From: Candidatus Cloacimonadota bacterium
GTDB lineage: Bacteria > Cloacimonadota > Cloacimonadia > Cloacimonadales > TCS61
Direction: 5' to 3'
Length of the DNA stretch: 33,462 nt
NCBI GenBank assembly: GCA_021735645.1
Contig: JAIPGP010000039.1
Location: 1 to 33,462, forward strand
Under the pieces are notes generated by a model. That model was given only the letters and a program-made list of their open reading frames with translations, was not told the DNA's origin and made no database searches. Of this stretch, positions 16,070 through 24,296 are shown in pieces (the stretch's first letter is position 1; the number at the start of each line of letters is the position of its first letter). The position numbers and the translations under genes are program-made.

Positions 16070-19000
16070 TTATTTTCTGGAATTAAGTTTTCTACCCTGT
16101 TCAATAGGGAACTGGTCGATGATACCCACAAAGTATTGCAGAATGAGTGAACCGTCATAGGCTTCCACAGTACCATTTCCATCCACATCTGAGCGGGTGA
16201 TACGCCATTCTTCCCAGGGCAGGGGAGCAACGGCTCCGGGATCGATGCCCACAAAATATTGCAGAGCAATGGAGGCATCAAAAGCTTCCACTATGCCATT
16301 TGCATCTACATCGCCATACATGATACCGCCAGAGGCAGGATTTACAGGAGTGAAGAGAATTGCTGTTTCGTCTGCCAGGGTGTGGGCAGTTTCCGGATAC
16401 ATATTGGCGAAAGTGATTTGCAGACCCTGAGTTCTATCGGGGCTTTCTAATCCTACAGTGGCATAGTTTTCTGCCTGGTCATAATTATTAACCTGCTGAT
16501 AGATAAATATAATTTCACCATCCCCGGTAGCAGTGGGATAGAATTCCGGGTCTCGCAGAACCACCTGGAAATATTGACGGTGGTTAGTGTTATATTCCAG
16601 TCTCATATTTTTCCATTCGAGCATGAATCTATGATTTTCTTCATCATACCAGAAATAGACATAGCCTTCGGAGAGGTCTTCCCAGAAGGGGCATACAAAG
16701 CCGCCAAAACCATAGCCGGAGGGAAGTGCTTTATTACGGAAGAACAGGGTATTTGTATTGCCGAAGGCGAAATATCCATTCTGGCAGACTGTGATACGGT
16801 CAAAGGTTTCACCATAATATTGAAAGTCAAAAGGCAGGTCAAGCTGGTCTAACCAGCCGTCATCAGTTTCGTGCATATGCGGTTGATTAAGGTAGCTTCC
16901 TTCTCCACCCGAATATGGTGAGATATCGAGCCATTCATATACCGGAACTTCAAAATCACCGTTGTCCTGGCTTTCTATTGCCATATAGCCATAGCTGTCA
17001 AAGGTGGGGCTGGCTTCACTGATCTCGCCAATGGGAATGGTGAGTGGAATAACCTGAACCAGTTCAGCACCTTCATAAAGAGAAAGCTGCAGGTTGGCAA
17101 CTTGTCCGGTGATCACATCTGCGGGTAAGAGTTCAAATAGAGATGAGTTTTCACTGGAGTTTCCCGGGGAAATGGAATAATAGGTGGATTCGCTGCTGGA
17201 GACTACTGCGTTGTTATCCAGGCTGAATAACACTGCATTGATAGCTCCTGTAGCAGTTGAACCGCTGTTATATAATTCAATATGTAGAGGACAGACAGTA
17301 CCCTGTAGCAGGAAACCGCTACTGTTTTCAATATCATAACCGGCGAAAGCAACTTCCTGAGATTGAGTTTCCAGCTCTATCAGACTGTTCGAATTGCCTA
17401 AGCTGGAGCTGATATTGCAGAATATTTGACCATAGCGTCCATCAATCCATTGATTATCGGTGTTGATAGTAAAAGTTAATGCAGTTTCATCATCACCAGC
17501 CAGTAAATCCAGATTAGCGGAGCTGACAGGTAGAAAGAAAACACCATCATAATTTAATAATTCAATTGTGATGCCATAAGCACTTGAGCCGGCATAATTA
17601 TGCAGCATCAGTTCCAGTTCAAAGCTGTTTCCGGCGGCAGGAGTGATATTTGTGGAATATTCTGTGATACCCAGCACATCAGCGGCTAATACTTCAATAT
17701 CTTCAGTGGCAGGAATATAGCCGTATCGGGAAGCAGTGACAGTGTATTCACCGAGTGGCATTTCCACGGGGATATAAGCATTGCCATTATTGTTAGTAAT
17801 GTCAGTAGCCAGCAAGCCATCATCAGATGTGACAGCAATGCGGAATCCTTCTACTTGATCATCATCGCTGCTGATAGTTATTTCCAGATAATTTTGTCCG
17901 ATCGGAATTTCTGTGTCTAATTCTAATTCGCAGTTTTTGGGAACATCCGTCCAGATTTCTACAGTGGGGTCGCCTAGAAGGTTATATACATAGAAATAGA
18001 ACTGGTCAGAATCAAGAGCATCGCCCCAGCTGTGACAGAAGGGGAAGTTATTATACATTTCCATTTTGCCGCGCAGCATCATGGCAGAAGTGCCAAATAT
18101 CCCTTCCTGAGTGATGCCCTGATATATACCTAAGTCATTACAGTTATTAAAAGGTGTTTTAGTATCATGCTCGCTGGGTCCGATGAAAGCGATAGCCCCG
18201 CGGGGATTACTGGCAGAGCCGGAGACCAGCCATGTTTCACCAAAGCAGGTGGAGTAGTTGTTATCAGCAAAATCACCACCTCCGCAGACGATACTGGTAA
18301 CCATTGGCAGCATCCAGCCATTGGAGAGGGCATTTATATCGCTGATCTCGAACATGTGTCCCCCAGAAGCACCATTCCAGTAATATGTACTGCCAAAGCC
18401 GCGATAATTAAGAAAAGTATAGCCGGTATTGATCAAGTTGCGCAATTGAGTGTGACTGCTCTGATAAGGAGCAATAAAAGTATCTATCTGGGTATAAGTG
18501 TAATCGAGCAGTTTTTCCCCTGCACAAATCACGGTTTCACGTCCGGAGAAATATTCTGAACCCCAGTTGTCTTCAATCACGCTCATCATCAAACCCTTTG
18601 TGTACCAGTTTGTATTGGTCATATAGGGATTACTTTCATAGTTGATTATCTTGGCGATAGCGGTGGCTAATTGAGTAGTGTTCTGGATTGATATTCTGCC
18701 TATCAGAACATCGGGGAAATAATCAGTTCCTTCCAGCAGAGCATAATTATGGTCTGTAACATCCCAGGGATACATATATCCTTCACAGTAGAAGGCGGGC
18801 AGACTGTAACTGCCACTCACATCACCCACCAGCAGAACATGGTCAGGCGGATACTCCCAGTTATCATAGGCATTCTGGATATAATTCTGGATACTGCTGC
18901 TGCTGCTGCCGGTTTCTGTGGTAGTGGCAATAATGGTGTGGAATCCCATTTTTTGTTTCCATTCTGCCAGTGTTTCCAGATATGAAACAACCGAAGAGCG

Positions 19001-19657
19001 GCTAATAATCAGCAGACTGCCTGCATAATCATTATCATTACGATAATTATCTGCTCCAAATATCCATGACTGTGCCAGTTTATCAAAGGCGGCAGAACCG
19101 GGCAGTTCCCTGCCTGTTTGAGGATTAGTATAATTTGAATAGTCCACGGCGAGTTGAAGATCAAGGTTTGTGATCAGACGAATCTTTTGCAGGGCTGGAT
19201 TATATTGCACTGCAGCTATACTCACCTGCGAAAAACGGTAGTTACGCATGATTGATGGCTCGCTGATAGAGACAATTTCGCTGGGAAACCACTGGTTAGC
19301 GCGGTTATCCTGCCATTGGGTAAGATCTTCCCAGCCACTGGGAATAATTGGGTTTTCGATGTCAATTTCCTTTACATCATAAGTAAATTTGCTGATTTCC
19401 CAGTTACCATTATCAGGCAGAGCGATAATTCTGGTATAATGTGGTAGATCAGGATCACCTATACTGGCTCCCTGCTGCAAACCTTCCACTTCCAAGGTAG
19501 TAAACCGTCCTAATTCCACTGATAGCGTGGATTTAGTGAGCTCCCCAGGCTCTCCGGTTATCTGCAGAACATCGCCAGCCAGATTAATTTCATAGCTGCT
19601 TAAGGCTAAGGTAAATAATAAAAATGTAAGCCCTAATATAAATTTCATTTTTGGCAT
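16070..19657 (-). CDS. Secreted peptidase C25 (gingipain-like) protein with dockerin-like C-terminus; catalytic His apparently replaced
   Basis: The 1195-residue product begins MPKMKFILGLTFLLFTLALS (signal peptide). The ATG at 19657 is preceded by AAAGGAGG; an upstream in-frame start at 19693 has no such site. Residues about 25-200 resemble the C25 propeptide region and about 215-570 the caspase-like C25 domain ('LLIISRSSVVSYLETLAEWK', 'HVLLVGDVSGSYSLP', 'ISIVG'-like strands, 'NLLGDPTVEIW'). The catalytic Cys is in 'SIVCGGGDF' (Cys458). The expected GHG His motif reads 'NYRGFGS', with Phe421 in the His position. Beta-sandwich domains follow. Residues about 1115-1180 form a dockerin-like pair of calcium loops ('GDVDANGIVEAFD', 'SDVDGNGTVEAYD'). 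No T9SS-type tail is present. It is either a protease variant or a non-catalytic relative. Confidence 0.82.
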   Translation of the reverse strand: MPKMKFILGLTFLLFTLALSSYEINLAGDVLQITGEPGELTKSTLSVELGRFTTLEVEGLQQGASIGDPDLPHYTRIIALPDNGNWEISKFTYDVKEIDIENPIIPSGWEDLTQWQDNRANQWFPSEIVSISEPSIMRNYRFSQVSIAAVQYNPALQKIRLITNLDLQLAVDYSNYTNPQTGRELPGSAAFDKLAQSWIFGADNYRNDNDYAGSLLIISRSSVVSYLETLAEWKQKMGFHTIIATTTETGSSSSSIQNYIQNAYDNWEYPPDHVLLVGDVSGSYSLPAFYCEGYMYPWDVTDHNYALLEGTDYFPDVLIGRISIQNTTQLATAIAKIINYESNPYMTNTNWYTKGLMMSVIEDNWGSEYFSGRETVICAGEKLLDYTYTQIDTFIAPYQSSHTQLRNLINTGYTFLNYRGFGSTYYWNGASGGHMFEISDINALSNGWMLPMVTSIVCGGGDFADNNYSTCFGETWLVSGSASNPRGAIAFIGPSEHDTKTPFNNCNDLGIYQGITQEGIFGTSAMMLRGKMEMYNNFPFCHSWGDALDSDQFYFYVYNLLGDPTVEIWTDVPKNCELELDTEIPIGQNYLEITISSDDDQVEGFRIAVTSDDGLLATDITNNNGNAYIPVEMPLGEYTVTASRYGYIPATEDIEVLAADVLGITEYSTNITPAAGNSFELELMLHNYAGSSAYGITIELLNYDGVFFLPVSSANLDLLAGDDETALTFTINTDNQWIDGRYGQIFCNISSSLGNSNSLIELETQSQEVAFAGYDIENSSGFLLQGTVCPLHIELYNSGSTATGAINAVLFSLDNNAVVSSSESTYYSISPGNSSENSSLFELLPADVITGQVANLQLSLYEGAELVQVIPLTIPIGEISEASPTFDSYGYMAIESQDNGDFEVPVYEWLDISPYSGGEGSYLNQPHMHETDDGWLDQLDLPFDFQYYGETFDRITVCQNGYFAFGNTNTLFFRNKALPSGYGFGGFVCPFWEDLSEGYVYFWYDEENHRFMLEWKNMRLEYNTNHRQYFQVVLRDPEFYPTATGDGEIIFIYQQVNNYDQAENYATVGLESPDRTQGLQITFANMYPETAHTLADETAILFTPVNPASGGIMYGDVDANGIVEAFDASIALQYFVGIDPGAVAPLPWEEWRITRSDVDGNGTVEAYDGSLILQYFVGIIDQFPIEQGRKLNSRK

Positions 19658-19804
19658 AAAACCTCCTTTCACATAAAAACAATATATAAGCAATTTTTAT
19701 TCCTTTTTTTGTCAAATAGAAATTAGACCTAGAGAAAATTATTGGATTGACATGTTTTCAGAATTTCTATGATTAGGGTAGCGAAGAAAAAATGGGGGTT
19801 TTTG
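19658..19804. promoter_or_regulatory. Divergent promoter region of the C25 and selenoprotein genes
   Basis: The 147-base gap serves two divergent genes. For the minus strand, TTGACA (19731-19726 read in reverse) precedes TTATAT at a long 20-base spacing, and AAAGGAGG (about 19668-19661) is the ribosome binding site. For the plus strand, TTGACA (19747-19752) and TATGAT (19768-19773) are 15 bases apart, and GGGGG (19795-19799) precedes the ATG at 19805. Shared control of the pair is plausible. Confidence 0.4.
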
Positions 19805-20992
19805 ATGAAGCGGATTTTGACTATTGGTGTATTACTGTTTATCAGTTTCCTGTCTGCATATAGTATTGGAGATACTGTGGGAGACCATTCCTGGACGGAT
19901 AATAATGGAGAATACCACAGTGTTCATGAGTTGGTGGATAGTGGCAGAGTAATTGTATTTTTCTGGGGCGAGAACTGGTGAGGGGGTTGCGTTGCGGCAG
20001 CGCCGCAGCTCAATAGCTGGTGGAATAATGTCAATCAGGATCAGGCTTATCTGTTATGTTCCTATAACTGGAACAGTTATTTTTATGATATGCCCTGGTC
20101 AGCGCAATTAGATAATTATTACAATAATTTTGGTAATGGCTATGTACCCTATTTTTCTGTAATTGGGGCAGATTATGAATATCTGAGTGGGGGTAACAAT
20201 GTTTCCACTGCCATAAGTGCTGCTAATAATGCCATGCTGGGCATGGTCAATATATCCGTTGTCAATCCTATTTCAAATGTGATATTAGAGGCAAATTCCT
20301 CTACTACAATAGACATCAGTGATACATTCATGCATTCCCAGGGTGTTGCCATGACCTATTCCATCACTGCAAATACTAATCCTGACTGCTGTTCGGCTTC
20401 CATCTCAGGCACTACGATATATCTGGATGCCCTGGTTGCAGGGGGATTCTCCAATATTACGGTAACAGCTTGTGCCGGAAATTTATCTGCTGACGATACT
20501 TTCCTGGTTACAGTTCTTGATATATACCCTGCTCCGTTAAATCCCGAAGGAATAGTTATCTATCCCGAAGTATCACTTTCCTGGGAAGAACCGCAAGCTC
20601 TGGCACTTATCACCGGCTGGAATATATACCGGAATAATGAACTGATTGCCTCTTTGTCTGATACACAGTTATCTTATAATGACCTGCCGGAAGATGGCAG
20701 CTATATTTATACAATCCGAACTCAATATCTGCTGGTGGAATCCAGTCCCAGTATCCCGATAGATATTGAAATCTGGAATACAATTGGAGACGTGGATGCC
20801 AGCCAGGAAATTGATAGTTATGATGCTTCGATGATTCTGCATTATGTGGCTGGTATAGAGCCTGGCGGTCTGCCTTTTCCCTGGGTGGAATGGCGCATTG
20901 AACGGGCAGATATAGATGGGAACGGTCTGATTGAAGCCTATGATTGTGCTCTGCTGCTTCAATACATAGTGGGTATTATTGACGAATTATAG
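19805..20992 (+). CDS. Secreted thioredoxin-fold selenoprotein candidate (UxxC) with Ig-like, FN3 and dockerin-like domains
   Basis: If the single in-frame TGA (19979-19981, codon 59) is read as selenocysteine, the product is 395 residues. Residues 1-19 are a signal peptide (MKRILTIGVLLFISFLSAY). Residues about 20-150 form a thioredoxin fold: 'VIVFFWGENW', TGA, 'GGCVAAAP'. The TGA takes the place of the first Cys of WCxxC, Cys62 is the resolving Cys, and Pro67 matches the conserved helix proline. 'GNGYVPYFSVIG' provides the cis-proline strand. Then come an Ig/cadherin-like domain (about 155-240), an FN3-like domain (about 243-320) and a dockerin-like pair of calcium loops (about 326-395, 'GDVDASQEIDSYD', 'ADIDGNGLIEAYD'). 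The whole downstream part keeps the same frame. ATG 19805 has GGGGG upstream; an earlier ATG at 19769 is poorly placed. The alternative is a recent nonsense mutation of a Cys codon, or a sequencing error. Confidence 0.8.
19982..20009 (+). promoter_or_regulatory. Candidate bacterial SECIS hairpin after the in-frame TGA
   Basis: GTTGCGGC (19991-19998) pairs with GCCGCAGC (20002-20009) as an 8-bp stem with one T-G wobble, closing a three-base AGC loop. The loop begins 18 bases after the TGA and has G as its second base. From memory, bacterial SECIS models require a loop about 16-37 bases downstream of the UGA with a G in its first two positions. The run of GC-rich codons here (GCG GCA GCG CCG) contrasts with the AT-rich rest of the gene, as expected if RNA structure is selected. 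Confidence 0.65.
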
Positions 20993-22290: not shown

Positions 22291-22303
22291 GCAAAGATCA
22301 TGT

Positions 22304-22456
22304 TGTGTGGTGCGAAAGTTAAAAGGGAATCACGTGTGAAACGTGAGCGGTCTCAGCCACTGTAAGCAGCGTAAAATAGATATTTGCGGGTCACTGCGAG
22401 AGCGGGAAGGCTTGGAAAGAAAGGGAGCTGCGAGCCAGGAAACCTGCCATACAGAC
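22304..22456 (+). promoter_or_regulatory. Cobalamin (B12) riboswitch aptamer
   Basis: Class hallmarks occur in order: GGTGCGAAAG, AAAAGGGAA (22321-22329), a CACGT-GTGAAA-CGTG helix, GCGGTCTCAGCCACTG (the GCCACTG core), and the B12 box GAGCCAGGAAACCTGCC (about 22432-22448). The aptamer binds adenosyl- or other cobalamins and usually turns expression off. It lies directly before the btuF-btuC operon, which fits B12 import. Protein reading frames running through this segment (from 22343) are not real. Confidence 0.93.
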
Positions 22457-22462
22457 AATGAA

Positions 22463-22527
22463 CATCTCCTGCTGAGAACTGGTGAGATGCTCAAAGCCTG
22501 TACTTTCTGCTGCATAACGGCAGGAGG
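22463..22527 (+). promoter_or_regulatory. Riboswitch expression platform with ribosome-binding-site sequestering helix
   Basis: CTCCTGCTG (22466-22474) can pair with CGGCAGGAG (22518-22526), burying the AGGAGG that serves the TTG start at 22532. A competing 6-bp hairpin, CATCTC (22463-22468) with GAGATG (22484-22489), uses part of the same strand and would free the site. This suggests control of translation initiation, not transcription termination, as no T-tract is present. Confidence 0.65.
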
Positions 22528-22531
22528 TATA

Positions 22532-23383
22532 TTGAACGGGAAATGCGGATATTTTTTCTGGCTGCTGCTGGCAGCACTATTGCTATCTAATTGCACAAAA
22601 CCACCTAAAGCTGACAGCTCTAACCTGAAACTAGTGATCACATCACCTGAAGTAGCGGAAATTGTTTATCAATTGCAGGGAGAAAAGAATATTGCCGGTG
22701 TGACAATGGAATGCAATTATCCGGTGGAACTTCAGAAGATATTTCGAGTAGGAACTTTTGGCGGGATTGATATGGAGAAAGTTGCCGGTTTACAGCCGGA
22801 TGTGATATTTGTATCCGGATTGGAGCAGAACTTTCTGGCAGCTGAGCTGCAAAAGCTTGCTTTCAGAGTGGAAAAGGTTTATCCTGCTTCACTGGCAGAA
22901 ATGCTGAGATCTATTGGAGAGATAGCAAAAGTTATCGGTGCAGAGCAGGTAGGAAAAGAACTGACCGACAGTTTGAGTGCCGTGATAGAGCATTTGCGAG
23001 AGACAATGCCTGAGCAGCGTCCATCCATCTATGTGGAAATATATGGAGATCCCATTATGAGTGTGGCAGATGACTCGTATGTGGGAGAACTGGTAGAATT
23101 AGCAGGATTTGATAATATCTTTGCCGGTCTGCCTCGAGATTACAGCCGGGTGTCACCGGAAGCTGTGCTGGCTGCTGATCCTGATTATATTTTGCTTTTA
23201 TATCCGGGCATGAATTCTGAGCAGGTGGAAAGTCGTAAAGGCTGGGGTCAGGTAAGTGCTGTGCTCCATCAACATATTTATAATTCAGAAGATATAGATC
23301 CAGACTTGTTGTTAAGGGCAACTCCGCGCTCACTTGAAGGTGTGAAACTGCTGCGAGAACTGATTGAGGAAAGAAATGAGTAA
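22532..23383 (+). CDS. btuF: Cobalamin ABC transporter substrate-binding lipoprotein (BtuF-like)
   Basis: The 283-residue protein starts at TTG 22532, five bases after AGGAGG. It gives MNGKCGYFFWLLLAALLLSN then Cys21, a lipoprotein signal with lipobox LLSNC. A longer frame upstream would be the riboswitch and is rejected. The body is a cluster A-II (BtuF/FhuD/HmuT) binding fold: 'KLVITSPEVAEIVYQL', 'RVGTFGGIDMEKVAGLQPDV', a long central helix (about 125-165), then 'YVEIYGDPIMSVADDSYVGE' and 'VSPEAVLAADPDYILLLYPG'. The cobalamin riboswitch points to a B12 or cobinamide substrate. It overlaps btuC by 8 bases (ATGAGTAA). Confidence 0.9.
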   Translation: MNGKCGYFFWLLLAALLLSNCTKPPKADSSNLKLVITSPEVAEIVYQLQGEKNIAGVTMECNYPVELQKIFRVGTFGGIDMEKVAGLQPDVIFVSGLEQNFLAAELQKLAFRVEKVYPASLAEMLRSIGEIAKVIGAEQVGKELTDSLSAVIEHLRETMPEQRPSIYVEIYGDPIMSVADDSYVGELVELAGFDNIFAGLPRDYSRVSPEAVLAADPDYILLLYPGMNSEQVESRKGWGQVSAVLHQHIYNSEDIDPDLLLRATPRSLEGVKLLRELIEERNE

Positions 23384-24296
23384 GCACTGGCGGGTCATTC
23401 TGCTTTTTGCACTGATGACAGCAGTGATTTATATATATATAGTATTTGGCGCGGCATCTGGCTATGTGATCCAGCATTTACGGCTGCCACGGCTGGTGCT
23501 TACCATGCTGGTGGGCATGACGCTGGGCAGCGTGGGATTTGCTTTTCAATTGTTATTAAATAATCCTCTGGCAGAGCCTTATATCTTAGGAGTCAGTTCC
23601 GGAGCTGCCCTGGCAAGTATCTTAGCTGGAGCTGCGGGTTTATTTCTACTGATGCCGCTATTTGGTTTTCTGGGAGCGCTGGCTGCCATGCTGGCAGTTT
23701 ACTGGCTGGCACAAAGAGACGGGATGTTCAATACAACGCGATTACTATTGGCAGGTATCATTGTGGGCATGTTCCTATCCTCCATAATATCATTGGTGAT
23801 GTATTTGAACCAGAATGATATTGGGAATATTATCAATATTTTAATGGGTAATCTAGGGCATATATTCAGTAATAGCGATTGGCAGATATTTATAGGGATT
23901 GCCATCATCTGTCTGGTTCTGCTGGGCTGGCTGGCTTTGCAGGGCAGACGGCTGCTGGTGCTTTCTACTGGAGATCTGTTAGCAGGGAGTCTGGGGCTGA
24001 ATGTGCGACGGCTGCGGGTGCAGATATTTATTGTGTGCTCTTTATTGACCGGGCTAACGGTAGCTTTTTCCGGGATAATCGGCTTTGTGGGATTGATAGT
24101 ACCGCATCTGGTGCGCCTAATCTGGAAAGGGAACAAGCCTGAAAGTATATTTTATGCCGGAGTATTTGGCTCTGTATTCTTATTGATCTGTGATTTTATT
24201 GCCATGCATCTGGCAGTGATCGAATTACCGGTAGGGATAGTGACCTCCTTTATCGGCTGTCCATTATTTATCTATCTGCTTTGGCGGAAGAAATAA
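23376..24296 (+). CDS. btuC: Cobalamin ABC transporter permease (BtuC/FecCD family)
   Basis: This is a 306-residue polytopic inner-membrane protein of the FecCD/BtuC family. Typical motifs are 'RLPRLVLTMLVGMTLGSVGF', 'NNPLAEPYILGVSSGAAL', 'GIIGFVGLIVPHLVRL' and the conserved 'GNLGHIF' region. About nine to ten membrane segments are visible. The ATG at 23376 overlaps the end of btuF and follows GAGGAAAG, so translation is probably coupled and under the same riboswitch. Its ATPase partner is not adjacent; the best candidate is the gene at 26712. Confidence 0.92.
   Translation: MSKHWRVILLFALMTAVIYIYIVFGAASGYVIQHLRLPRLVLTMLVGMTLGSVGFAFQLLLNNPLAEPYILGVSSGAALASILAGAAGLFLLMPLFGFLGALAAMLAVYWLAQRDGMFNTTRLLLAGIIVGMFLSSIISLVMYLNQNDIGNIINILMGNLGHIFSNSDWQIFIGIAIICLVLLGWLALQGRRLLVLSTGDLLAGSLGLNVRRLRVQIFIVCSLLTGLTVAFSGIIGFVGLIVPHLVRLIWKGNKPESIFYAGVFGSVFLLICDFIAMHLAVIELPVGIVTSFIGCPLFIYLLWRKK

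What the first reader, a model, noticed from the sequence alone, without database searches (positions are those of the whole stretch)
19982..20009. SECIS-like hairpin directly after the TGA, in an unusually GC-rich codon run
Seen: an 8-bp stem with an AGC triloop starts 10 bases after the TGA, and its loop lies 18 bases away with G in position 2. Codons GCG GCA GCG CCG stand out in an AT-leaning gene. Established: bacterial SECIS elements sit inside the coding sequence just downstream of the UGA. Inference: the RNA structure is under selection for SelB binding.
Basis: partly seen in the sequence, partly recalled or inferred. Interest (0 to 1): 0.7.

Follow-up and report, generated by a model that had tools for sequence, protein, structure and literature searches.

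The report
Selenocysteine signal hairpin in thioredoxin-like gene
A small RNA hairpin just after a "stop" codon in this bacterial gene is almost certainly the signal that makes the ribosome insert selenocysteine there, in an exported thioredoxin-like redox protein that is found, nearly always with the same stop codon and hairpin, across the little-studied phylum Cloacimonadota and in two Delongbacteria.

Summary
Confirmed. TGA 19979-19981 lies in frame in a 395-codon gene (19805-20992, +) for a signal-peptide, ResA-like thioredoxin-fold protein (W-U59-G-G-C62) with a C-terminal dockerin. Nine bases later an 8-bp stem with AGC triloop runs 19991-20009. The genome has SelA, SelB, UCA tRNA-Sec and a Sec-containing SelD. 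Of 29 clear homologues in the order, 28 carry TGA at the same column (the other has Ser); five further Cloacimonadota/Delongbacteria loci do too. The codon run GCG-GCN-GCG-CCG is nearly invariant although GCG is only 4.9% of Ala codons elsewhere in these genes; the Sec-less homologue uses GCA GCT GCA. Pairing forces three of the four wobble G's; the fourth is the loop's first base, G in 30 of 31 GCN codons (A only in the window copy). Outer pairs covary. SelD and formate dehydrogenase of the same genome carry the same design: 7-bp stem, GG-starting loop 17-18 nt after UGA. The hairpin is an ordinary bacterial SECIS. The exported UxxC family matched no NCBIfam model and I found no report of it, so it looks undescribed.

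The parts
19805..20992 (+). Selenoprotein gene, 395 codons when TGA is read as Sec: signal peptide, ResA-like thioredoxin domain (U59-G-G-C62), C-terminal dockerin. A plain ORF caller sees only 20090-20992 (300 aa).
19805..19864 (+). Probable signal peptide MKRILTIGVLLFISFLSAYS
   Evidence: sequence inspection; cleavage site not predicted
19979..19981 (+). In-frame TGA read as selenocysteine (U59)
   Evidence: same column in 28 of 29 homologues of the order and in L124, L128, L139, L140, L141
19988..19990 (+). TGC, Cys62, resolving partner of the UxxC pair
   Evidence: invariant column
19991..20009 (+). bSECIS hairpin: arms 19991-19998 and 20002-20009, AGC triloop 19999-20001
19994..20005 (+). 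Codon run GCG GCA GCG CCG (Ala-Ala-Ala-Pro); homologues GCG GCG GCG CCG. Wobbles 1, 3 and 4 are base-paired, wobble 2 is loop position 1
   Evidence: codon usage and alignment
20786..20968 (+). Dockerin type I domain (protein residues 328-388)
   Evidence: PF00404, 27.5 bits over cut-off 22.9

Best explanation
The hairpin at 19991-20009 is a bacterial SECIS element. As a ribosome reaches UGA 19979-19981, the first ~9 nt are in the mRNA channel and the 8-bp stem-loop stands at its entrance; SelB carrying GTP and Sec-tRNA-Sec(UCA) binds the loop (G at position 1-2) and delivers selenocysteine instead of release factor 2 ending translation. The product is an exported ResA/TlpA-like thioredoxin-fold protein with a U-G-G-C redox centre, probably a thiol-disulfide or peroxide oxidoreductase acting outside the cytoplasm. 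The strange GC-rich codon run is what the protein sequence Ala-Ala-Ala-Pro must look like if it also has to form this hairpin (wobbles 1, 3 and 4 must be G to pair) and carry a G at the start of the loop (wobble 2). Shown here: anatomy, conservation, covariation, machinery, shared design in selD and fdhA. Inferred: SelB contact, Sec insertion, enzymatic role.
For: TGA in 28 of 29 homologues of the order and in 5 further Cloacimonadota/Delongbacteria loci, always U-x-x-C. 122 of 127 GCN/CCN/TCN/ACN codons in the run end in G, against GCG 4.9% of Ala and CCG 16% of Pro codons elsewhere in the genes; the Ser homologue uses GCA GCT GCA. 8-bp helix: 79.9% of cells paired, 6 of 8 pairs with changes on both sides, 22 such cells, 0 of 500 shuffles reach the score; a competing hairpin has no two-sided change. 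Wobble base 15 tracks its partner 29: A with U 12 of 13, U with A 9 of 9 at four-fold sites, P = 2e-5 ignoring relatedness. Compensated variants: G004 AGAGGC-GGC-GCCUCU; Delongbacteria L141 CGGA-GGG-UCCG with protein TEGP. Same genome: selD UAAGUCC-GGG-GGACUUA with loop 17 nt after UGA, fdhA AGUAGCC-GGUCU-GGCUGCU, 18 nt. SelA, SelB with SelB-wing_3, tRNA-Sec UCA, SelD-U. SelA in 23 of 24 genomes with the gene, 24 of 82 without, P = 2.5e-9.
Against: No experiment. Segment energy is not better than shuffles (z -1.5) and unconstrained folds compete. G028 and G012 lack the core in the predicted fold and G034 has one broken pair. Only 14 of 33 homologues reach -7.5 kcal/mol in the +10 to +41 segment. 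Pair 14-30 is formed in only 14 of 33. The window's loop AGC lacks the usual G at position 1. Shuffle controls do not correct for relatedness; the four inner pairs are almost invariant and say little by covariation. For selD two of the five measures are at shuffle level.
Confidence: 0.95

Rival explanations
1. The TGA is a true stop: the gene is a pseudogene, a sequencing error, or two genes, and the hairpin is chance.
For: A standard ORF caller gives a 300-aa ORF starting at 20090, after the TGA.
Against: The same in-frame TGA in 28 of 29 homologues of the order at 34-77% identity in independent assemblies, and in another phylum; reading frame and active-site motif conserved on both sides; full Sec machinery.
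Confidence: 0.01
2. UGA is reassigned in this genome (Trp or Gly) and the hairpin has no role in decoding.
For: In-frame TGA is tolerated in several genes.
Against: TGA is the normal stop of 3 of 20 long window ORFs; in-frame TGA falls at known Sec sites (SelD UxxK, FdhA UH, UxxC); tRNA-Sec with UCA anticodon.
Confidence: 0.01
3. The GC-rich conserved run is selected for something other than SelB recognition, such as a pause or readthrough hairpin, mRNA stability or co-translational export.
For: Only comparative data are on hand; SelB contact is not shown. Stem sequence in this family is more conserved than pairing alone would require unless the Ala-Ala-Ala-Pro constraint is counted.
Against: Same geometry (GG loop 17-18 nt after UGA, 7-8 bp) in selD and fdhA of the same genome; the Sec-less homologue lost the codon bias (one case); match to the published bSECIS model.
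Confidence: 0.03
4. The element is a SECIS but the functional fold is a different one, e.g. the unconstrained RNAfold structure with a GGCA loop, or GGUG-CUGY pairing with GCGG-CGCC.
For: These are the minimum-energy folds of the window and of several homologues when the bases next to UGA are free.
Against: The GGUG/CUGY alternative has no pair with two-sided change and equals shuffles; the named hairpin has six. The alternatives use bases within 9 nt of UGA, likely inside the ribosome. selD and fdhA match the named geometry.
Confidence: 0.05

Closest known systems
Bacterial SECIS (bSECIS) consensus model, as restated in PMC13188914 Fig. 2A
   Same: In-frame, directly after Sec-UGA; small loop with G in position 1-2; stem 4-16 bp; loop 16-37 nt from UGA (here 17); energy below -7.5 (here -12.3).
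   Different: At the small end: 3-nt loop and near-minimal spacing; window loop AGC does not follow the usual G[G/U] pattern, while nearly all homologues (GGC) do.
E. coli fdhF SECIS (recalled, not tested)
   Same: Loop starting GG about 18 nt after UGA; the fdhA SECIS of this same genome has a GGUC-containing loop.
   Different: Triloop instead of GGUC; no constant bulged U in the upper stem (one sits lower in G000b only).
Prx-like thiol:disulfide oxidoreductase (PF00578, UxxC) and Redoxin family (PF08534, UxxC) selenoproteins
   Same: UxxC in a peroxiredoxin/ResA-like thioredoxin fold; best Pfam matches are PF00578 and PF08534.
   Different: Window protein scores 22.7 against the PF00578 cut-off 26; signal peptide, 328-1063 aa where complete, with dockerin or T9SS tail; no Cys homologue at this relatedness in the order.
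ResA (thiol-disulfide oxidoreductase, e.g. PDB 4nmu, 1st9)
   Same: Closest solved fold (4nmu, TM 0.73); active-site residue just before helix 1.
   Different: 14% identity; Sec in place of the first Cys; extra C-terminal domains.

Membership tests
bacterial SECIS element | lies in the coding sequence directly after an in-frame Sec-UGA | tested here: met
bacterial SECIS element | apical loop 3-9 nt and upper stem 4-16 bp | tested here: met
   3-nt loop, 8 bp
bacterial SECIS element | G in one of the first two loop positions | tested here: met
   AGC in the window; GGN in nearly all homologues
bacterial SECIS element | 16-37 nt between UGA and loop | tested here: met
   17 nt
bacterial SECIS element | MFE <= -7.5 kcal/mol | tested here: met
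   -12.3 hairpin alone, -13.5 from +10; only 14 of 33 homologues reach it in that segment
bacterial SECIS element | structure conserved by compensatory change | tested here: met
   three weak or exceptional members
bacterial SECIS element | organism has SelA, SelB, tRNA-Sec, SelD | tested here: met
bacterial SECIS element | binds SelB and directs Sec insertion | not testable with these tools
   needs experiment
selenoprotein (UxxC thioredoxin-fold) | UGA at the catalytic position, conserved among homologues | tested here: met
   predicted structure puts U59 at the N-terminus of helix 60-75
Prx-like thiol:disulfide oxidoreductase (PF00578) | PF00578 score over its gathering cut-off | tested here: inconclusive
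   window protein 22.7 (domain alone 25.2) against 26; 24 of 28 members match at E<=0.1, best 4e-7
any NCBIfam selenoprotein or thioredoxin model | score over curated cut-off | tested here: not met
   window protein 16.8 bits at best against 96.8; the window domain likewise, and the members' best E-values are only 2e-4

The most novel reading that the evidence does not exclude
An undescribed, nearly all-Sec family of exported (T9SS-tail or dockerin) ResA-like selenoproteins of Cloacimonadota and Delongbacteria, in genomes whose SelB reads a fixed-ruler SECIS (7-8 bp stem, loop starting with GG 17-18 nt after UGA), and in which one synonymous site (loop position 1) is held by protein-RNA recognition rather than by pairing.
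Probability: 0.55. Interest if true: 0.5.

Novelty: new member of a known kind. Interest (0 to 1): 0.42.

Why it matters
It shows that gene callers cut off the catalytic half of a conserved redox protein in this phylum. It gives a natural dual-coding case in which almost every synonymous choice in four codons can be explained base by base. It adds an exported selenoprotein family, often with a type IX secretion tail, to a phylum whose selenoproteome I found little written about. The mechanism itself is the textbook one.

Tried and rejected
Unconstrained RNAfold: other folds win, not conserved. Alternative hairpin GGUG/CUGY with GCGG/CGCC: well paired but no covariation. First DNA pattern search for further SECIS in the genome had a wrong spacing and found nothing; replaced by covariance models. 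Model R1 over 40 genomes found only the same gene family above E = 0.005. Plasmid search: no match. Literature: no paper found joining Cloacimonadota, Delongbacteria or type IX secretion with selenoproteins, beyond a note on the Cloacimonetes-type tRNA-Sec; the library is incomplete.

Full report
What is there. The TGA at 19979-19981 is followed by GGGGGTTGC, then GTTGCGGC-AGC-GCCGCAGC at 19991-20009. The stated positions, loop, stem and codons are all correct. Reading TGA through gives a 395-codon frame from ATG 19805 to TAG 20992: a signal-peptide-like start, a thioredoxin-like domain with W-U-G-G-C, and a dockerin (PF00404). AlphaFold2 on the domain (mean pLDDT 93.9) puts U59 immediately before helix 60-75, the usual catalytic place, and Foldseek ranks a ResA-type thiol-disulfide oxidoreductase first (4nmu, TM 0.73).

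Is it more than chance? Energy alone does not say so: the segment folds no better than dinucleotide shuffles (z -1.5), and free folding prefers other structures. With the 9 bases next to UGA left out, the named hairpin is the optimum (-13.5). Among 1468 TGA triplets of the window (both strands, all frames) only this one has a triloop at that spacing with at least 6 bp and G at loop position 2.

Machinery. The same genome (3.77 Mb, 95% complete; the window is its contig 32) has SelA (443 bits), SelB (319 bits, over cut-off, with SelB-wing_3), a tRNA-Sec with UCA anticodon and a SelD that is itself a selenoprotein. TGA is also an ordinary stop in 3 of 20 long window ORFs.

Homologues. Of 106 genomes of the order, 24 carry the gene, in 29 copies; 28 have exactly one TGA, always at the UxxC column; the 29th (L078) has WSPSS. 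SelA is present in 23 of the 24 gene-bearing genomes (the exception is 61% complete) and in 24 of the other 82 (Fisher P 2.5e-9).

Selection on the RNA. In 33 aligned genes the run reads GCG GCG GCG CCG with few exceptions. GCG is 4.9% of Ala and CCG 16% of Pro codons elsewhere in the genes, yet 122 of 127 GCN/CCN/TCN/ACN codons in the run end in G, also when the residue is Ser or Thr. The Sec-less homologue uses GCA GCT GCA (one case only). The reason is visible: with Ala-Ala-Ala-Pro in this register, pairs 17-27, 18-26 and 20-24 need G at wobbles 4, 1 and 3, and wobble 2 is the first base of the loop. That base pairs with nothing yet is G in 30 of 31 GCN codons, which points to recognition of the loop. 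The window copy is the one exception (AGC) and keeps G at loop position 2, as two SelD genes with AGG and AGA loops do.

Covariation. On 33 sequences the 8-bp helix has 79.9% cells paired, 6 pairs changed on both sides and 22 such cells; no shuffle of 500 reaches the covariation score, and slid versions are far lower. Wobble 15 is A when its partner 29 is U (12 of 13) and U when it is A (9 of 9) at four-fold sites. Two striking cases: G004 changes C-G to A-U at pair 17-27; Delongbacteria L141 changes C-G to A-U at pair 20-24 with loop GGG and a different peptide (TEGP). Exceptions: G028 has a U-C mismatch, G034 a C-A mismatch, G012 can only form a shifted hairpin with an AGU loop. These controls do not remove relatedness.

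Same design elsewhere in the genome. selD: UAAGUCC-GGG-GGACUUA, loop 17 nt after UGA, repeated with GGN loops in most of 30 SelD genes of the order. fdhA: AGUAGCC-GGUCU-GGCUGCU, 18 nt, in the own genome, with the same geometry in the 12 Sec-FdhA genes read. Three unrelated proteins thus share a 7-8 bp stem with a GG-starting loop 17-18 nt after UGA (AGC in the window copy itself). A covariance model of this family plus selD finds in the own genome only these copies (built partly from them).

Mechanism. Best reading: SelB-dependent Sec insertion, then export of a UxxC oxidoreductase. In three relatives checked the tail is a T9SS type A sorting domain over cut-off (L139, L075, L124), and many other tails look alike by eye. 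In the window copy the tail is a dockerin like that of the neighbouring C25 protease. Export, substrate and reaction are inferences.

What is known. The element fulfils all four constraints of the bSECIS model (PMC13188914). UxxC thioredoxin-fold selenoproteins of PF00578 and PF08534 are known (PMC9312934, PMC13188914). No NCBIfam model recognises the window protein over cut-off. I therefore file the hairpin as a new member of a known kind, in what looks like an undescribed selenoprotein family.

Noticed in passing
window 22292-22465 (+): Cobalamin riboswitch (RF00174, 83 bits) overlapping the start of the called ORF 22343-23383, a periplasmic binding protein (PF01497), followed by a FecCD permease 23364-24296; the true start of the first gene is probably downstream of the riboswitch.
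   Followed up: partly
window 16070-19693 (-): C25 (gingipain-type) protease with propeptide and a C-terminal dockerin like that of the divergently transcribed selenoprotein gene.
   Followed up: no
L075 (own genome C31:29729 onwards): Second copy of the UxxC selenoprotein, 1063 aa with T9SS tail; its SECIS can extend to 8 bp, a bulged U, then 8 bp more.
   Followed up: partly
own genome, many contigs: The C-terminal dockerin-like module of the window protein recurs on more than 20 proteins of this genome, which suggests a common surface-attachment tail.
   Followed up: no
L078 (G027 C160): Sec-less homologue with WSPSS in place of WUxxC: both redox residues are Ser, so it has probably lost catalysis rather than reverted to Cys.
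   Followed up: partly
L170, L177, L184: Some SelD genes of the order (QTGUSIKLPP and AAGUAAKFSY types) lack the GGN triloop at this register and may use another SECIS form.
   Followed up: no
L002 1503-1597 (own tRNA-Sec): tRNA-Sec of 95 nt; a Cloacimonetes-type 7+5 acceptor/T-arm has been reported (PMC5330540) and could be checked here.
   Followed up: no
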